From: Steroidobacter agaridevorans
Lineage (GTDB): Bacteria > Pseudomonadota > Gammaproteobacteria > Steroidobacterales > Steroidobacteraceae
NCBI RefSeq assembly: GCF_009932555.1
Contig: NZ_BLJO01000002.1
Coordinates: 297,975 to 361,974, forward strand
Length of the DNA stretch: 64,000 nucleotides
Direction: 5' to 3'
This document shows, in pieces, positions 47,907 through 57,386 of the stretch (within the stretch, counting starts at the first letter, position 1; the number at the start of each line of letters is the position of its first letter). A program made the translations under genes and the position numbers. A model generated the notes under the pieces. It saw only the letters and a list, made by a program, of their open reading frames with translations, was not told the origin of the DNA and did no database searches.

Positions 47907-48608
47907 TTAGGACTCCACACTGATCCGCATGGCGGCAGCCATGGCGAAAGGCCCGAGGCTGACGAAGAACAACAACAGCGCTGCCAGCAAGTTTAGCGGA
48001 CCGGCCACCGGTTCGCCGTGCATGGCCAGATCCACGGCGCGGGCGCCGAAGATCAGCACCGGCATCTCCAGCGGCAGCACCAGCAACGCTAACAGCACAC
48101 TGCCCCGCCGGACACTCACCGTAAGCGCCGCCCCGATGGCTCCAAGGACCGACAGCGATCCGGTGCCCAGGGCCAGCGTCGCGGCCAGCACCGGCCATAC
48201 AGACTGCGGCATTCCCAAAGCAGTTCCCACGATCGGCGCCATGAGCACCAACGGCAGCCCGGTCAGCAGCCAATGCGTGAGCGTCTTCGCCAGCAACAAC
48301 AGGGACAACGGCTGGCCGGACAGAACCCACTGCTCCATGGTCCCGTCTTCGACGTCGGGCCTGAATAGCGATTCAAGCGCCAGCAACGAAGCAAGCATGG
48401 CCGCCACCCACAGCACCCCCGGCGAAATCTTGCGCAACTCGTCCAAGGCCGGACTGATCGCCAGCGGGAACAACGTCGTGACGATCACGAAAAAGATCAG
48501 CGGCTGGAGCACCTGATCCCAATGACGCACGGCCAGCCGCAGGTCGCGCGCCAGCACCAGCATCAGGATTTTGCCCAGCCCGGGCGTCGTCTGAACGGAC
48601 GACTGCAT
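47907..48608 (-). CDS. ccmB: Heme exporter protein CcmB
   Basis: A 233-residue permease of the CcmABC complex with six membrane helices. Conserved FRPDVEDGTMEQWVLSGQPL and LPLVLMAPIVG segments identify it. The reading frame extends upstream inside ccmA, but ATG 48608 overlaps the ccmA stop by one base, the expected coupling. Confidence 0.96.
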   Translation of the reverse strand: MQSSVQTTPGLGKILMLVLARDLRLAVRHWDQVLQPLIFFVIVTTLFPLAISPALDELRKISPGVLWVAAMLASLLALESLFRPDVEDGTMEQWVLSGQPLSLLLLAKTLTHWLLTGLPLVLMAPIVGTALGMPQSVWPVLAATLALGTGSLSVLGAIGAALTVSVRRGSVLLALLVLPLEMPVLIFGARAVDLAMHGEPVAGPLNLLAALLLFFVSLGPFAMAAAMRISVES

Positions 48609-49255
48609 CAGCGCAGCTCCAGTGTACGTACCCCAGGCTGGCCCTGAAGTAGCAGCTGATGTGCGGCGGTGAGGATCATGCCGCCGGTTCGCATGTGCTC
48701 GGCGATCCGCGCTTCGAACAGCGCGATGCCTGCCTTGTCGAGGTTGGTAATCGGCTCGTCCAGAATCCACAGCGAGGCGCGGGTCAGCATGATGCGGGCC
48801 AGAGCGACTCTTCGCTTCTGCCCCGCCGACAACGCGCGCACCGGCAAGTCTGCGCAAGCTTCCACGTGCAGTAACTGGAGAGTTTCGCGTAGCTCCTCCG
48901 TAGTGACTGCGCGGCGGACGGAGACGCCAAACCGCAGATTTTCCAGCGCGGTGAGCTCGGCTTTGAGGCCGTTGACGTGCGCCAGATACGCAAGCTCGCG
49001 ATGAAACTCATCCCGCCCCTCCGGCAGCTGCTGCCCCTGCCAGACGATCTCGCCCGACTCGGTCGGCAACAAGCCCGCCACACAGCGCAGAAGACTGGTT
49101 TTGCCCACGCCATTCGGTCCGACGACCTGCAGCAGCTCGCCGCTGTAAAGGGCAAAGGACACGCCGCGTAACAGGTGTTTTTCGCCGCGCCAGAGATGGA
49201 CGGCGCGCGCTTCTAATTGCGGCTGCGGCGAAGTCGCAGCGACCTGTGCAAGCAT
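48608..49255 (-). CDS. ccmA: Heme exporter ATP-binding protein CcmA
   Basis: A 215-residue ABC ATPase. Walker A is GPNGVGKTS, the signature is LSAGQKRRVALAR (serine-alanine instead of the usual SGG, as often in CcmA), and Walker B is LWILDEP. First gene of ccmABCDEFGHI; the promoter must lie in the 94 bp between it and the divergent tRNA gene. Confidence 0.96.
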   Translation of the reverse strand: MLAQVAATSPQPQLEARAVHLWRGEKHLLRGVSFALYSGELLQVVGPNGVGKTSLLRCVAGLLPTESGEIVWQGQQLPEGRDEFHRELAYLAHVNGLKAELTALENLRFGVSVRRAVTTEELRETLQLLHVEACADLPVRALSAGQKRRVALARIMLTRASLWILDEPITNLDKAGIALFEARIAEHMRTGGMILTAAHQLLLQGQPGVRTLELR

Positions 49256-49349: not shown

Positions 49350-49697
49350 GCCTGGGTGGCGAAATTGGTAGACGCAAGGGACTTAAATTTTGAGCACCCG
49401 GCTCGGAAACGGCCGGTGTGAATGGGGTCAAATTCGGGGAACCAGCCTCACGCTCGCGCTTCACCGCGCACGTGCCTGCAATCCCGAGCTAAGCCTGGGC
49501 GCTGCCCAGGAAAGTGTAGAGACTTGACGGCCCCTGTCTAACTTCCGCGCTCAGCGTGCGGAACACGACAAAGAGAAAGTCCAGACTCCAAACGACCAAC
49601 GGATCAACAGTCCGTCAGTCGGCAGTGAAAACTGTAGCGAGTACGAAAATCCCTCGGGGGCAACTCCGTACCGGTTCGATTCCGGTCCCAGGCACCA
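49350..49697 (+). tRNA. tRNA-Leu(UAA), interrupted by a group I intron
   Basis: Exon 1 is 49350-49384 and exon 2 is 49646-49697, giving an 87-nt tRNA with encoded CCA. The acceptor stem GCCTGGG pairs with CCCAGGC (49687-49693). The anticodon stem AGGGA/TCCCT encloses the loop CTTAAAA, so the anticodon is UAA. A long variable arm (CGGGGGCAACTCCG) and a GGTTCGATTCC T-arm complete a standard class II leucine tRNA. The intron falls between U34 and A35 of the anticodon. The 3' end also serves as the attachment site of the element that follows. Confidence 0.95.
49385..49645 (+). ncRNA. Group I intron in the anticodon loop of tRNA-Leu
   Basis: A 261-nt self-splicing-type intron without an ORF. The 5' exon ends in CTT, which pairs with GAG at 49392-49394 including the U·G wobble at the splice site (P1). 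Conserved core segments follow in the expected order: AATTCGGGGAA (P4 side), CAATCCCGAGCTAAGCC (P4-P6), GTGTAGAGACTTGACGG (P7 with the guanosine site), AAGAGAAAGTCCA, and the terminal guanosine at 49645. The layout and insertion point match the small intron of cyanobacterial tRNA-Leu(UAA) genes. Confidence 0.92.
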
Positions 49698-49701
49698 TCT
49701 C
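49682..49701 (+). repeat. attL: tRNA 3' end repeat of the integrative element
   Basis: CCGGTCCCA-G-GCACCATCTC at the 3' end of the tRNA. The same 19 bases, lacking one G, recur at 56912-56930. The integrase gene begins 180 bp downstream, the normal arrangement for tRNA-targeting elements. Confidence 0.8.
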
Positions 49702-49876: not shown

Positions 49877-49880
49877 TTTG

Positions 49881-51086
49881 ATGGCGTTAACGGAACTCGA
49901 AATCCGTTCGGCAAGGGCGACGGAAAAGCCGATCAAACTGTTCGACGGCGATGGCTTGTATCTGTTCGTTCAACCGAACGGTGGTCGATGGTGGCGCTTC
50001 AAGTATCGCTTCCATGGGAAGGAGCGCGAGCTGTCGTTGGGCGTGTATCCGGAAGTCTCGTTGAAGCTCGCACGGACTCGTCGTGAAGACGCGCGGCGCG
50101 CGGTGGCGCAAGGAATTGACCCGAGTGCTGAGCGCAAGGCGGCTAAGGAAGCGCGGCAAGTTACCTTCGAGTTGATCGCCGAGGAATGGTTGGCACTCCA
50201 GGCGAAGAAGCTGGCGCCGGTCACTTACGACAAGGCTCGCTGGATGCTCTCGACGTTCATCTACCCTCGCCTCGGATCTCGACCGATTGCCGAGATCACG
50301 GCGCCAGAACTGCTGGCGGCGCTCCGGGTGATCGAGACACGCGGTACGCACGAGACGGCACACCGAACCAAGCAGCGAGTCGGCCAAGTGTTTCGCTATG
50401 CCATCGCGACTGGACGTGCGGAACGTGACATCTCGGTCGACCTTCGCGGCGCTCTGGCTCCAATCGTGACCACACACCATGCCGCAATCACGGACCCTAT
50501 TGCGATTGGTCATCTGCTGAGAGCCATTGATGGCTACAGCGGTCAGCCGGTGACTGTCGCGGCGCTCAAGCTGGCTCCGCTGATGTTTGTCCGGCCCGGT
50601 GAGTTGAGACAGGCCGAATGGTCTGAGATCAATATGGACGCCGCAGAGTGGCGTATTCCAGGCGGGCGCATGAAGATGCGCGAGGCGCACATCGTGCCAC
50701 TAGCTAAGCAAGCGGTTGAGATACTTCGGGACCTCCAGCCACTCACAGGCCGGAGCCGGTATGTCTTCCCGTCGCTGCGAAGCAGGGACCGACCGATGTC
50801 GGAGAATGCGATCAACGCGGCGCTACGCCGGCTAGGATACGGACATGAGGAAATGACCGCTCATGGCTTTCGAGCGATGGCTTCCACTTGCTTGAATGAA
50901 CAAGACTGGCATCCGGACCTGATCGAGCTTCAACTTGCCCATGCCGAACGTAACAAAGTCCGCGCAGCTTACAATCGATCGACGCGTCTCGCTGACAGAA
51001 AGAAGATGATGCAGGCTTGGGCCGACCATCTAGATACTTTGCGCGCCGGTGCACAGGTCATCCAGCTCCGGCGGCAATCTGGATGA
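49881..51086 (+). CDS. Tyrosine recombinase / integrase, P4 type
   Basis: 401 residues. The N-terminal DUF4102 arm-binding domain (PIKLFDGDGLYLFVQPNGGRWWRFKYRF, then ELSLGVYPEVSLKLAR) is followed by a SAM-like core-binding domain and the catalytic domain. Catalytic residues seen are the first Arg in FVRPGELRQAEW, the H-x-x-R box in HGFRAMAST, and the nucleophile Tyr in KVRAAYNRS. The ATG at 49881 follows GGGGGAAC. It sits beside attL and should catalyse insertion into the tRNA-Leu 3' end. Confidence 0.95.
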   Translation: MALTELEIRSARATEKPIKLFDGDGLYLFVQPNGGRWWRFKYRFHGKERELSLGVYPEVSLKLARTRREDARRAVAQGIDPSAERKAAKEARQVTFELIAEEWLALQAKKLAPVTYDKARWMLSTFIYPRLGSRPIAEITAPELLAALRVIETRGTHETAHRTKQRVGQVFRYAIATGRAERDISVDLRGALAPIVTTHHAAITDPIAIGHLLRAIDGYSGQPVTVAALKLAPLMFVRPGELRQAEWSEINMDAAEWRIPGGRMKMREAHIVPLAKQAVEILRDLQPLTGRSRYVFPSLRSRDRPMSENAINAALRRLGYGHEEMTAHGFRAMASTCLNEQDWHPDLIELQLAHAERNKVRAAYNRSTRLADRKKMMQAWADHLDTLRAGAQVIQLRRQSG

Positions 51087-51185: not shown

Positions 51186-53468
51186 TTATACGCGAACGCG
51201 CCCGCGGACCGCGACTGCAGCGTTGAAAGCGTGGCCGCGCTGCTTCAGAGCCCGCACACCATCTCTGTACACCGGCTTGTCTGACTCAAGCGCGCGGACC
51301 GTAACGATGCAGAAAACTTCTTGCGGCAGATCTGGCGGGGTTTCTCCTGCACGATACAGAACCTCGAAACGAAGCTGCCAACGATTTCCCTCGACTCCCC
51401 GCGGAAAGCGCTTGCGATAAACCTTGGTTGGCGACCACTTGAATCCATGCTCGATGAGTGAGGATTCGAATCCTTCGCCCTGCGATCCGGGGTCGGGTGG
51501 AACGACCCCATCGAATTTGAGCTTGCGCACCGTAATCTTGGCGCCACTGGTCTTATCAATTTTCGTTACGTTGCCCATTTTCAGAGTGCCCATGCTCACA
51601 TTGACGTTCGATCGGCAGTATTCGGCGCCGTTCTTCGAATCGAGCATTGGGGCATAGCACGCTGTGACTACTATTTCTCCGCGAAATCTTCCGTTCTCGA
51701 GGAGGCACTCGGGCATTGGGAACTCATGCTGCACCGTCTTGCCGTTGGGAACGTAGACTCGGTGCCAAGTGGTAAATTCGTGATCTTCGCAAGCTAAGAC
51801 GTTCTCAATCGCGCTTGGCACCCCAAAGCCGAAGTATCTGAGCTCATCTGGATGGCGTGATGCCGATGATGTAGCTGCTGCATGGATGACGACTGCACGC
51901 ACCATAGGGGCGCTGACCTGATGGCCGCCCGCGTTCAGGCGGCTCCATGCATCTGCAGCCGCACTTGCTACCAAAGGAGCTGCATAACTTGTTCCCCACC
52001 CCAGCACGTGATTATCGGAGGGCGATAGAGATCCAATGCCGCAACCATCTGCCGTATTTGCTACTGTGCAGTTTCCGCCGAAGTGAACAAGCTCAGGCTT
52101 AGGCAACATTCCAGGACCTGGGCCACGTCGTGAGTAGGCCGTCGGATGGCCTGCTTTCACCGCACTGTCAGCACTGTGCTGATGTGCTAGGGATCCAACG
52201 GTTAGCACCAGAGCAGCATCTGCAGGGGGGCCGATCAAGTCGCGGCCGTCTGCGTGCCAACCCGCCAGTGGCCACGTGCGAAGCGGCGGCTGTACATAGT
52301 TACCCGCGGCCACCACGAACAACACCTGCTCGCTCTGCGCGATCTCATCGAGTTCGCAGGCAAATGGGCTGAACTCCGGGCCGATGCATGGAACCATGGA
52401 CCCCAAGGAGAGATTCCACACTTTTACATCACGATGAGCGCGGACCACGTCCTGTACGCGAGCGATGAGATCTTCGACGCCCAGAGGTTCGTAGTTGCTG
52501 AATACGCGTGCCGAGAAAATTCGGCAGGGACTCACCGGCAGATCAGCTAGCCCCGGATTCAATGCCTGACCGCCGGCTATGAGCCCGGCAATGAATGTTC
52601 CGTGAGCGTAGTCGTTATTATCGGCAGAAGCTGGTGCAAATGCAGCCTCGCCAGCAATCCAGGGGCGCAAGCTAATGGCAGTAGTACTAACGCCGGTGTC
52701 TAGGACGCCAACGACTGGAAGTGATCTATCAGCCGGCGGCATCTCTAGCTTCGCTGTTGCCGCACTAGTTGCGATAGCAGGCTGTGCCTGAACGAGCACG
52801 TTTGGCCAAATGCTGCGCACGGCGGGGTGGCTGGCAAGCGCCGAGATAGTCTCGGCATCCGTTGTTCTAACCAGGTAACGTCGGGTCTTGCGTTGCAAGA
52901 CCTCCACGCCCAAAGATTTGAAGTATGAGGCTAAGTCCGCCGCTGATTCTTTGTCGGCGGATGCATCGTGGTAGTCAAACACGTTCAGGACAATTCCAGC
53001 GGCCTGCGGCATCTTATCGGGCGACGTGTGTAGCACATCTTCAGTCGAATAAGGTGTAATCGAGTCAATCGTGGTTATGTCGGCCTCGCCGTCTTGGGTC
53101 GTTATAGTCAAGATGGCGTCGCGAGTGGCTTCGCGTGAATGCGCTGACACCGCGACGAGCAACGTGCCGATCTCGCGCGCCCCCACGAGACGAGCACGGC
53201 CGGCCTGCTGAAATAGGTAAAGGGGACGATGTGATTTCGCGATTGCCTTGGATCGGAGCTTTACTTTGACAACTCCATTGCGAATGCCACGCTCATTCGC
53301 TCGGGCGAGAACCGCATTCGCGGCAGCCATCCATTGGTTCGCAATGTTACGCCGAAGCGTAGGCGTCAGCGGTACAAAGAGCTTCCGCCCGCCACCACCA
53401 CCGATTACCTGCCTGTACTCTTGGGCACCGTGATCAACGACGAGAGCCGGATTCTCCTGTTTGGCCAT
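51186..53468 (-). CDS. Subtilase (S8) peptidase, partner of the AAA ATPase
   Basis: A 760-residue protease without a signal peptide, so cytosolic. An N-terminal region of about 245 residues of unknown fold precedes the peptidase domain, with catalytic D257 (GVLDTGV), H289 (YAHGTFIAG), oxyanion N390 (AAGN) and S494 (GTSYAAP). The C-terminal 200 residues are beta-rich and unassigned. ATG 53468 has GGGGAAAG upstream and the gene overlaps the end of the AAA gene by 35 bp, so they are co-translated. The pairing suggests an ATPase-controlled protease acting inside the cell, possibly a defence module. Confidence 0.9.
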   Translation of the reverse strand: MAKQENPALVVDHGAQEYRQVIGGGGGRKLFVPLTPTLRRNIANQWMAAANAVLARANERGIRNGVVKVKLRSKAIAKSHRPLYLFQQAGRARLVGAREIGTLLVAVSAHSREATRDAILTITTQDGEADITTIDSITPYSTEDVLHTSPDKMPQAAGIVLNVFDYHDASADKESAADLASYFKSLGVEVLQRKTRRYLVRTTDAETISALASHPAVRSIWPNVLVQAQPAIATSAATAKLEMPPADRSLPVVGVLDTGVSTTAISLRPWIAGEAAFAPASADNNDYAHGTFIAGLIAGGQALNPGLADLPVSPCRIFSARVFSNYEPLGVEDLIARVQDVVRAHRDVKVWNLSLGSMVPCIGPEFSPFACELDEIAQSEQVLFVVAAGNYVQPPLRTWPLAGWHADGRDLIGPPADAALVLTVGSLAHQHSADSAVKAGHPTAYSRRGPGPGMLPKPELVHFGGNCTVANTADGCGIGSLSPSDNHVLGWGTSYAAPLVASAAADAWSRLNAGGHQVSAPMVRAVVIHAAATSSASRHPDELRYFGFGVPSAIENVLACEDHEFTTWHRVYVPNGKTVQHEFPMPECLLENGRFRGEIVVTACYAPMLDSKNGAEYCRSNVNVSMGTLKMGNVTKIDKTSGAKITVRKLKFDGVVPPDPGSQGEGFESSLIEHGFKWSPTKVYRKRFPRGVEGNRWQLRFEVLYRAGETPPDLPQEVFCIVTVRALESDKPVYRDGVRALKQRGHAFNAAVAVRGRVRV

Positions 53469-54597
53469 TTGCTTTCCCCTTTTGTTTTTTGTGTGATGTT
53501 CTATTCTTGCCCTGTTTCAGCAGTTGTCGCATAGATGCGCCCGTCCCTGCTGCTATGACTCGTAGCGGTACCGATTTCTCCAGTAGGAGCTTTGTTATCT
53601 CCTCCCTTGTCGGTTCGCGTTTCTGTGCACTTAGCACGCTATGCGCAATGCGCGTTAACAACGTTCCCTCGGATACCGCAGGCTCATTGGCAAGCACGGC
53701 CTGCCGAATGCAATCTTCTACGGCCTGACGGATCAATCCTCCGCTCAGCCCCGCAGTGAGTTCCACAGCTCGTACCAACGACAAATCCGGCGCCGCGAAT
53801 CGTCCCAGATAAGACTGTAGCAATGCGAAGCGCAGCGCCGGTGGCGGTAAATGAATTTGCAGGCGATAGTTAAAGCGTCGCCATACGGCAGGATCCAATA
53901 GTTGCTCATGATTTGTCGCAGCTACCACAATCGTTTGTGGCGGCAACGCGTCCATGTTCTGCAGCAGCCCGACCACCACGCGCTTAAGCTCGCCAAGCTC
54001 TTGCGCATCATCCCGTGCCTTAGCGAGTGCATCGAATTCATCTAGAAAAAGCACGCACGGCCGCTGCGACGCGTGATCGAACAGATAGCGAATGTTCTTC
54101 GCTGTGCTACCGAGAAATGACGAAATGAGGCTATCGCATCGCGCGGTTAGCAGCGGCAATCCCAACTGAGCCGCTATAAAGCGCGCCAACTGGGTTTTGC
54201 CGACGCCGGGCGGGCCAAAGATGAGCATGCGCGGCCATGCTTGGATTCCGGCGGCAAAGAGTCGATCCATGTGCAACACGTCGGCGAGGAAGCGTTGAAC
54301 TTCGTCGCGCAAGTGTTCATCAAGCAGTACGTTCGGCTCATCGACAGGCACGTGTTCTTCGTGGGCAAGCCCAAGACGACTCTCATGATCGATAGGGACC
54401 GTGCCAAACTGGCCACCTGACAGTGGCACGAGTGCCGAGGGTAGAGTGTCCAGCTTGCGCTGGATCAGACGGGCCTGTTGGTGTTCGCCTTCCTGCTCCA
54501 ATTTCTCAACCAGCAAACGCGCATAGTTCACCGCCTGCTCGGCGTTAGATCGCAGCGCGCCCTCCAAGATCTTCAGCACTTCCGGCAAATAGTTCAA
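53434..54597 (-). CDS. AAA-family ATPase, partner of the subtilase
   Basis: A 387-residue classical AAA protein (FtsH/spastin-like core). An N-terminal helical segment (1-60) precedes Walker A GPPGVGKT (128-135), Walker B VLFLDEFDA (182-190), sensor 1 AATN, and an arginine-finger region RRFNYRLQI. The C-terminal tail is basic (KNRTSHKKQKGKANGQ). An ATG at 54741 would open the frame, but its product begins with a cysteine-rich stretch unlike a protein. The TTG at 54597, behind GGGAGG, gives a sensible start. First gene of the pair with the subtilase. Confidence 0.85.
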   Translation of the reverse strand: MNYLPEVLKILEGALRSNAEQAVNYARLLVEKLEQEGEHQQARLIQRKLDTLPSALVPLSGGQFGTVPIDHESRLGLAHEEHVPVDEPNVLLDEHLRDEVQRFLADVLHMDRLFAAGIQAWPRMLIFGPPGVGKTQLARFIAAQLGLPLLTARCDSLISSFLGSTAKNIRYLFDHASQRPCVLFLDEFDALAKARDDAQELGELKRVVVGLLQNMDALPPQTIVVAATNHEQLLDPAVWRRFNYRLQIHLPPPALRFALLQSYLGRFAAPDLSLVRAVELTAGLSGGLIRQAVEDCIRQAVLANEPAVSEGTLLTRIAHSVLSAQKREPTREEITKLLLEKSVPLRVIAAGTGASMRQLLKQGKNRTSHKKQKGKANGQTGESGSRR

Positions 54598-54622
54598 TCC
54601 GGCCTCCCGCAGCCATGCGGCA

Positions 54623-54940
54623 TTATGCCCGAAATGAGAACAAAGTGAGCAAAACCGAGAACAAAAGTCGAAGGATCGTAAACAGACGGATAGGGTTTCT
54701 GGGTTCCGGCTCACGCATCCACGAGGACCGCCGACGCGCATAGAGGCCGTGCGTAGACACTCGCGATGTAGCGCTCGCTACCGTGCTCCAGGTCCGTTGA
54801 CGTTGCGTCGCGCGCCTCCCGCTCGCGATAACGTACGTGTTGAACGTACCGAAGCGGCCCTCGCGCGTGTAATGCGCGCCGACCAACTCGTAGCCACTCC
54901 GATCGAGATCGGCTCGAAGTTCATTCTTTCTGCTAATCAC
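54623..54940 (-). CDS. Possible small protein upstream of the AAA gene
   Basis: A frame from GTG 54940 (GGGAGTCGGA upstream) to TAA 54623. The first 45 codons read like protein (KNELRADLDRSGYELVGAH, then GRFGTFNTYVIAS), while the rest is arginine- and then leucine-rich and may be chance. If real, it would be the first gene of the AAA/subtilase operon. The GAGAACAAA repeats fall within its 3' end. Confidence 0.25.
   Translation of the reverse strand: MISRKNELRADLDRSGYELVGAHYTREGRFGTFNTYVIASGRRATQRQRTWSTVASATSRVSTHGLYARRRSSWMREPEPRNPIRLFTILRLLFSVLLTLFSFRA
54636..54666. promoter_or_regulatory. Direct repeats upstream of the AAA gene
   Basis: GAGAACAAA at 54636-54644 and again at 54657-54665, spaced 21 bp (two helical turns), just upstream of the TTG start at 54597. 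This spacing is typical for a dimeric regulator binding one face of the DNA. A CATAAT hexamer lies between the repeats and the start. Confidence 0.35.
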
Positions 54941-56911: not shown

Positions 56912-56930
56912 CCGGTCCCAGCACCATCTC
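56912..56930 (+). repeat. attR of the integrative element
   Basis: CCGGTCCCA-GCACCATCTC, matching the tRNA 3' end at 49682-49701 except for one missing G. It marks the right end of the element; chromosomal sequence resumes here. Confidence 0.75.
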
Positions 56931-57086: not shown

Positions 57087-57386
57087 TCAGGCGACCTTCG
57101 CTGTTAGCTTTAGTCCCAACGCTTTGACCACCTTCAACACCGTCGCGAGACTCGGATTGCCCTCCGGCGAGAGAGCCTTGTAGAGCCCTTCGCGCGAGAT
57201 GCCTGTGTCCTTCGCGAGCTGAGCCATTCCCCGAGCACGCGCGATATCTCCTAATGCCGCAGCGATGTACACGGCGTCGTCGCCTGCCTCTTCCATGCAG
57301 GCTTCGAGATAGGCTGCGAGGTCTTCCTCGCTTTTGAGGTAGTCGGCAACGTCGTACCGAGAGAACTTTTCTTTCTTGCGCACCAT
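57087..57386 (-). CDS. Addiction-module antitoxin, HI1420 family
   Basis: A 99-residue DNA-binding antidote. RYDVADYLKSEEDLAAYLEACME is the family N-terminus, and the helix-turn-helix is QLAKDTGISREGLYKALSPEGNPSLATVLKVVKALG. ATG 57386 lies 2 bp after the toxin stop, so toxin precedes antitoxin, as usual in this family. Confidence 0.92.
   Translation of the reverse strand: MVRKKEKFSRYDVADYLKSEEDLAAYLEACMEEAGDDAVYIAAALGDIARARGMAQLAKDTGISREGLYKALSPEGNPSLATVLKVVKALGLKLTAKVA

What the first reader, a model, noticed from the sequence alone, without database searches (positions are those of the whole stretch)
49350..49697. Group I intron in tRNA-Leu(UAA) of a proteobacterium-like genome
The anticodon loop is split after U34 by a 261-nt intron that keeps the P1 pairing with the U·G wobble, P4-P7 core segments in order and the terminal G. 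It matches the cyanobacterial/plastid tRNA-Leu intron in position and layout. The well-known proteobacterial tRNA introns are in tRNA-Ile(CAU) and tRNA-Arg(CCU), so a tRNA-Leu intron in this background suggests a separate ancient lineage or a transfer. The same gene is also the target of an integrase.
Basis: partly seen in the sequence, partly recalled or inferred. Interest (0 to 1): 0.85.

Follow-up and report, generated by a model that had tools for sequence, protein, structure and literature searches.

The report
Self-splicing intron inside leucine tRNA gene
The only gene found for one leucine tRNA in this bacterium is split in its anticodon by an RNA that very probably cuts itself out; related introns turn up in other proteobacteria and in tRNA genes of large phages, so it is a member of a known kind with a wider spread than usually described.

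Summary
Confirmed: window 49350-49697 is a tRNA-Leu(UAA) gene split after U34 by a 261-nt group I intron (49385-49645). ARAGORN with introns allowed finds it. Rfam's general model sees it only below its cut-off (26.8 of 50 bits), but a covariance model built without this lineage gives 105 bits, E 1e-21. All core helices form, the P7 pseudoknot included. No intact tRNA-Leu(UAA) was found in the genome, so splicing should be essential. The interpretation needs correcting: introns at this site are not out of place here. At least 20 of 369 sampled genomes of the class and 18 of 398 of the phylum carry one, as do Bradyrhizobium and Mycetohabitans plasmids and 67 of 144 selected viral loci, and isolate phage Atu_ph07. 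Putative cases in Thiomargarita and Beggiatoa are in print. The window's copy lies in a well-supported gammaproteobacterial clade, follows its neighbour ccmA inside the family, and is absent at the same locus in some relatives. A link to cyanobacterial introns is neither shown nor excluded. The integrase claim holds: an island with an IetAS defence pair follows the tRNA and ends in an imperfect att copy. Splicing is inferred, not shown.

The parts
49350..49384 (+). 5' exon of tRNA-Leu(UAA), ends with C32-U33-U34 (49382-49384)
   Evidence: ARAGORN on joined exons and with introns allowed
49385..49645 (+). group I intron, 261 nt; longest stop-free stretch 46 codons; last base is the terminal G
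   Evidence: helices counted; reading frames
49392..49394 (+). GAG of the internal guide; pairs with C32-U33-U34 (U34.G wobble) as P1
   Evidence: sequence; kept in 13 of 13 copies of the order
49423..49647 (+). match of covariance model R1: catalytic core from P3 to the 3' splice site (P3 49424-49429 with 49529-49534; P7 49521-49525 with 49577-49581)
   Evidence: 105.1 bits, E 1.1e-21
49646..49697 (+). 3' exon of tRNA-Leu(UAA) with CCA; also the attL side of the downstream island
48608..49255 (-). ABC transporter ATPase, called ccmA here from its place among cytochrome c biogenesis genes (name recalled); marks the orthologous locus
   Evidence: Pfam ABC_tran; next to tRNA-Leu(UAA) with and without intron in relatives
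49878..51086 (+). tyrosine integrase with an Arm-DNA-bind_3 domain
   Evidence: Pfam Phage_integrase, Phage_int_M, Arm-DNA-bind_3
51186..53468 (-). IetS-like subtilase of the island
   Evidence: PADLOC IetS, E 2.1e-233
53434..54741 (-). IetA-like AAA ATPase of the island
   Evidence: PADLOC IetA, E 5.3e-126
56912..56930 (+). imperfect copy of the tRNA 3' end (49682-49701, one base missing), probable attR
   Evidence: two of four 10-base word matches in 9.2 kb lie side by side here; similarity to the locus of G002 resumes at 57087

Best explanation
It is an endonuclease-free group I ribozyme in the only tRNA-Leu(UAA) gene found in this genome. The precursor is transcribed, the 5' exon pairs with the guide GAG (P1, U34.G), a guanosine bound in P7 attacks after U34, and the freed U34 attacks after the terminal G; the exons are joined to an ordinary tRNA-Leu(UAA). 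The anatomy is shown; the splicing is inferred from established group I chemistry. Within the family the intron is inherited with its locus and was most likely lost in several relatives. On a wider scale tRNA-Leu(UAA) introns occur over proteobacteria, plasmids and large phages; some phage copies contain HNH-type reading frames, so homing between tRNA genes is a likely means of spread (inferred). The downstream integrase uses the 3' exon as its attachment site, independently of the intron.
For: Lineage-free model R1: 105.1 bits, E 1.1e-21, only match in 64 kb. In 13 copies of the order 97.6% of 880 pair cells are standard pairs, 19 of 68 pairs change on both sides, and sliding the partners by 1-3 columns drops pairing to 29-47%. 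In the 24 training introns 99.0% of 914 cells pair, 27 of 40 pairs change on both sides and each of the nine core helices has at least one such pair. All 13 keep P1 with U.G and the terminal G. No intact Leu(UAA) gene was found. The locus is orthologous: next to ccmA in 12 intron-bearing genomes (own included) and in 9 intronless ones. Intron similarity tracks CcmA similarity among the 12 (Mantel r 0.71, permutation p 2e-4) and presence/absence needs 4 changes on the CcmA tree. The window lies in a 12-row family clade and a 27-row gammaproteobacterial clade, both 99/96. Phage side: 67 of 144 viral loci have Leu(UAA) split after U34; isolate phage Atu_ph07 too.
Against: No RNA data. Rfam's curated model does not reach its cut-off. 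In the alignment of the order the count of further pair types is not above shuffles (430 of 500 as high), P1 and P7 never vary there, and one outer helix pairs in only 67% of cells. One of the 12 intron-bearing relatives, G047, has no ccmA match beside the gene (L043). The CcmA tree has only 3 starred branches of 18, so losses against gains are not firmly placed. The direction phage to host is not shown; phage rows lie at weakly supported places and the bootstrap had not settled.
Confidence: 0.9

Rival explanations
1. The intron came to this lineage by recent transfer from cyanobacteria, since cyanobacterial tRNA-Leu(UAA) introns sit at the same place.
For: Same gene and, as recalled, the same insertion point; a tree that holds the gammaproteobacterial clade and one recalled Anabaena intron together is not rejected (AU p 0.448).
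Against: Core identity of the window to the recalled Anabaena sequence is 63%, rank 81 of 100 rows, against 76-80% to the nearest Leu introns of other families of the class. The window is inside a gammaproteobacterial clade with 99/96 support and its intron follows the neighbouring gene inside the family, which speaks against a recent transfer; an old one is not excluded.
Confidence: 0.07
2. The tRNA is a decaying pseudogene and the intron no longer splices.
For: Rfam score is below the cut-off.
Against: Exons form a perfect tRNA, the core is conserved with compensating changes over 13 genomes, and no other Leu(UAA) gene was found although UUA codons need one (the codon rule is recalled).
Confidence: 0.03
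3. The intron arose by movement of the genome's own CAU-tRNA group I intron (L001) into tRNA-Leu.
For: The same genome has a group I intron in a CAU tRNA (RF00028 63.9 bits).
Against: R1 gives that intron only 30.6 bits over model positions 11-76; it was below the limit for the tree. Three introns of the same CAU tRNA type from other genomes (L294, L297, L300; exons compared) form a separate 100/99 clade on a long branch.
Confidence: 0.02
4. The ancestor of the gammaproteobacterial clade took the intron from a phage-encoded tRNA-Leu(UAA), by homing or by recombination with phage tRNA genes.
For: 67 of 144 viral loci hold an intron of this model in the same site. Some hold HNH-type reading frames: two of four tested pass a Pfam HNH cut-off (L076, L110), one matches below it (L075), one has no match but looks alike (L100); in L096 a look-alike frame lies next to the split tRNA (by eye). 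Phage and cellular rows intermingle (L262 with huge-phage L211, 92/90; L253 with viral L073, 100/94).
Against: Direction and branch order are weakly supported; the closest viral row to the window is 75% identical. The viral loci were found by patterns that favour this intron type, and R1 was trained on 22 of them.
Confidence: 0.35

Closest known systems
Putative group I introns in tRNA-Leu-TAA and tRNA-Arg-TCT of Candidatus Thiomargarita nelsonii and Beggiatoa BOGUAY (PMC4853749, passages seen; it cites MacGregor 2013, not seen)
   Same: Gammaproteobacteria (class recalled), same tRNA gene, putative group I intron; the paper says the genes were missing from annotation.
   Different: There structure and subgroup were not determined; here structure, covariation, inheritance and spread are given.
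[quoted passage not shown] details recalled)
   Same: Same tRNA gene; insertion between U34 and A35 and guide pairing as recalled.
   Different: Core 63% identical to one recalled Anabaena copy; the window's clade is proteobacterial as far as sampled.
Alphaproteobacterial tRNA-Arg(CCU) intron (Bartonella BbgpI, shown to self-splice in vitro and splice in vivo; PMC7717549, passages seen)
   Different: Another tRNA and another position in the loop.
Azoarcus tRNA-Ile(CAU) intron (sequence recalled; PMC3984707 passages mention its crystal structure)
   Same: Same core motifs; core 66% identical to the window (recalled sequence).
   Different: Other tRNA, other insertion point.
Rfam RF00028 Intron_gpI
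   Same: Full-length alignment of the core.
   Different: 26.8 bits, below the cut-off of 50.

Membership tests
Group I intron | P1 helix with U.G at the 5' splice site | tested here: met
   C32-U33-U34 with GAG, 13 of 13 copies of the order
Group I intron | terminal G before the 3' exon | tested here: met
   G at 49645; in all 13 rows of alignment A2
Group I intron | P3-P9 core with the P3/P7 pseudoknot | tested here: met
   P7 never varies in the order and is backed by two-sided changes only in the wider set
Group I intron | reaches the curated Rfam cut-off | tested here: not met
   26.8 bits against 50; a detection threshold rather than a property of the intron: the lineage-free model R1 gives 105.1 bits
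Group I intron | self-splicing or splicing in cells | not testable with these tools
   needs RNA
[quoted passage not shown]
Cyanobacterial/plastid tRNA-Leu intron lineage | nests with cyanobacterial introns in a tree | tested here: inconclusive
   one recalled sequence only; AU p 0.448 for a joint clade
Subgroup IC3 | IC3 peripheral elements | not tested
   label recalled from Azoarcus and Anabaena introns
Mobile group I intron | encoded homing endonuclease | tested here: not met
   261 nt, longest stop-free stretch 46 codons; some phage relatives have HNH-type frames

The most novel reading that the evidence does not exclude
Phage tRNA genes are a main reservoir and vehicle of bacterial tRNA group I introns: HNH-armed introns home into the tRNA-Leu(UAA) anticodon of large phages and, by phage-host exchange, have repeatedly entered plasmids and chromosomes of proteobacteria, where some became fixed in single-copy essential tRNA genes and were then inherited without an endonuclease, as in this window.
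Probability: 0.35. Interest if true: 0.7.

Novelty: new member of a known kind. Interest (0 to 1): 0.48.

Why it matters
It explains why a genome of this kind can seem to lack an essential tRNA gene: plain ARAGORN and Rfam at its cut-off both miss it. The wider result, tRNA-Leu(UAA) introns in many proteobacteria and in phage tRNA genes, makes the old question of the age and movement of tRNA introns testable with sequence data at scale. Review passages that I saw put bacterial tRNA introns mostly in cyanobacteria and a few alpha- and betaproteobacteria (PMC4033280) and phage introns in protein genes only (PMC3984707).

Tried and rejected
Chance resemblance: rejected by R1 and covariation. Recent transfer, and origin from the genome's own CAU-tRNA intron: see rivals. 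A single origin of all Leu(UAA) introns: holding all 74 Leu rows together is rejected (AU p 0.0105, one of three such tests, not corrected). A genome-collection scan with a tRNA-intron pattern gave one chance hit, in what looks by eye like a ribosomal protein gene. An exact cyanobacterial-type pattern in viral contigs and the recalled Anabaena sequence in plasmids gave nothing, so real cyanobacterial introns could not be fetched. The window intron itself has no DNA match in the phage collection; three phage intron queries did. Direct repeats for att sites by the repeat finder, by a 27-base pattern and by near matching found nothing; the imperfect copy appeared only with 10-base words. The first script for exon joining failed by a parsing fault and was redone. 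One row counted there as Leu(UAA), L296, is an intact tRNA beside a weak match and is left out of my counts; L241 is read as Leu(UAA) split one base earlier and is left out too.

Full report
OBSERVATION. The window holds a tRNA-Leu(UAA) gene at 49350-49697, split after U34 (49384) by 261 nt. The joined exons score 121.8 in ARAGORN as tRNA-Leu(taa), and ARAGORN with introns allowed finds the gene. Plain ARAGORN and Rfam at its gathering threshold see nothing in the window. With a lax threshold RF00028 aligns over its whole length at 26.8 bits, E 7.5e-5 for 551 bases. In the whole genome RF00028 (E up to 0.001) finds only another intron, in a CAU tRNA on another contig (63.9 bits); its joined exons fold as a CAU tRNA of 76 nt, most likely tRNA-Ile(CAU), a known proteobacterial case (PMC8450103 passages on tRNA-Ile2 introns).

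STRUCTURE. Model R1 was built from 24 introns that exclude the window's lineage: 22 viral, one from a Bradyrhizobium plasmid, one from a Mycetohabitans megaplasmid. On these, 99.0% of 914 pair cells are standard pairs and 27 of 40 pairs change on both sides; slid controls give 26-45% paired. R1 finds one place in the window, 49423-49647, 105.1 bits, E 1.1e-21. On 13 copies from the window's order, with the tRNA stems included, 97.6% of 880 cells pair and 19 of 68 pairs change on both sides; the number of further pair types is not above shuffles, and P1 and P7 never vary there.

FUNCTION OF THE GENE. RF00005 gave 49 matches in the genome, 46 above cut-off; all 49 were read, and Leu anticodons TAG, CAA, GAG and CAG are intact but TAA is absent. 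An uninterrupted Leu(UAA) pattern has 0 matches. UUA codons therefore appear to depend on splicing (inference; the assembly is 97.3% complete).

RELATIVES. A DNA search of 60 genomes (59 relatives and the own one) found the split gene in 8 of 13 of the same genus, 3 of 23 of the same family and 1 of 23 of the same order; these 12 are split after U34. A further weak match in G033 was not followed. Intact tRNA-Leu(UAA) genes stand beside ccmA in nine relatives, five of them of the same genus. Intron and CcmA similarity correlate among 12 genomes (Mantel r 0.71, p 2e-4), and presence needs 4 changes on a CcmA tree of 21 rows, which has few strong branches. So the intron is inherited at its locus and was lost, or less likely gained, several times.

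WIDER SPREAD. All 68 class matches were examined: at least 20 genomes in 16 families, the own genome and one of its genus included, have Leu(UAA) split after U34 (18 by exon joining after dropping one false call, two more by ARAGORN with introns: L258, L268); 15 are called Arg(UCU), two Arg(CCU), the rest other or unassigned. Of the 47 phylum matches 29 loci were examined: 16 called Leu(UAA) and two more (L323, L328) by inspection, 18 genomes; G000 and G423, already counted in the class, come on top. Sixteen of the 18 are of another class than the window's, presumably Alphaproteobacteria. Named cases: conjugative plasmids of Bradyrhizobium sp. ISRA435 and ISRA443 (sequence seen; ISRA436 and ISRA437 by the same listed match) and megaplasmid pBRH01 of Mycetohabitans rhizoxinica HKI 454.

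PHAGES. R1, which was trained on 22 of these, had 140 matches in them. Exon joining names 67 loci Leu(UAA) split after U34; 33 matches are called other tRNAs, some doubtful, and 40 are unassigned. The scans favoured this type. Agrobacterium phage Atu_ph07, an isolate of 490 kb, has a 278-nt Leu(UAA) intron, and a 735-kb and a 595-kb metagenomic phage have one each. Introns of 679-809 nt in L075, L076, L100 and L110/L136/L201 hold reading frames that look HNH-like; of four tested, L076 and L110 pass a Pfam HNH cut-off, L075 matches below it (E 1.7e-4) and L100 has no match. In L096 a look-alike frame ends at the start of the split tRNA (by eye).

TREE. IQ-TREE on 99 introns plus two recalled references, 172 columns (bootstrap not settled). 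The window is in a 12-row family clade and in a 27-row clade of Leu introns of its class that holds one other tRNA intron (both 99/96). Other Leu introns of the class lie elsewhere, L327 with Mycetohabitans (100/99) and L262 with a huge phage (92/90). Two Arg(CCU) introns sit among Leu introns of the presumed Alphaproteobacteria (97/98). The recalled Anabaena intron falls with viral rows on a weak branch (60/95). One origin of all Leu(UAA) introns is rejected (p 0.0105); a joint clade of the window's clade with the recalled Anabaena intron is not (p 0.448), nor is one with the second clade of the class, L244/L251/L255/L320 (p 0.283).

INTEGRASE. Similarity to the four closest relatives (L033-L036) stops 0-14 bases after the tRNA; in L040 it runs on for about 130 bases. 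Other integrases (42-68% identical) follow in three relatives (L033, L034, L044) and a fragment at a contig end in L040. In G002, with no match to this integrase in the 1.5 kb after the gene, similarity to the window resumes at 57087. At 56912-56930 lies a copy of the tRNA end with one base missing. The island of about 7.2 kb carries an IetS/IetA pair.

PRIOR WORK. Ten searches of the held open library ran; an eleventh was malformed. A 2016 paper reports putative group I introns in tRNA-Leu-TAA and tRNA-Arg-TCT of Thiomargarita and, citing 2013 work, of Beggiatoa (PMC4853749, passages). I saw no report of tRNA introns in phages; a 2014 review says phage introns lie in protein genes despite many phage tRNA genes (PMC3984707, passages), and a jumbo-phage overview names introns only in protein genes (PMC7824862, passages). 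The library lacks most subscription papers, so absence there is weak.

VERDICT. A real, very probably working group I intron, new member of a known kind; what surrounds it in sequence space is more interesting than the single case.

Noticed in passing
L066-L209 (viral contigs), L210 (phage Atu_ph07), L211, L212: Phage tRNA genes split by group I introns: 67 of 144 loci Leu(UAA), others called Lys, Asn, Arg, Ser and more; some introns hold HNH-type frames.
   Followed up: partly
L063 2495-2784, L065, L064 2500-2847: Split tRNA-Leu(UAA) genes on Bradyrhizobium conjugative plasmids and on a Mycetohabitans megaplasmid.
   Followed up: partly
L001 1478-1854 (G000:C5): The same genome has a second group I intron, in a CAU tRNA (probably Ile), with a long insertion relative to RF00028.
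   Followed up: partly
L257, L259, L260, L261, L265, L269, L270, L284: Eight group I introns in tRNA-Arg(UCU) of the class form a 100/99 clade of their own; more such genes by tRNA name only.
   Followed up: partly
L291, L293, L294, L297-L300: Seven weaker R1 matches are introns in the same CAU tRNA type as L001; ARAGORN misnames them Gln(ctg).
   Followed up: partly
window 51186-54741: IetS/IetA anti-phage defence pair on the island inserted at the tRNA.
   Followed up: partly
window 56912-56930: Imperfect copy of the tRNA 3' end, probable attR of a 7.2-kb island.
   Followed up: yes
window 57.9-64 kb: Genes that look like type IV pilus minor pilins and PilY1 on the minus strand after the island (by eye).
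   Followed up: no
G033:C3:14123-14274: Weak DNA match of 67% reaching into the intron core in another genus of the family.
   Followed up: no
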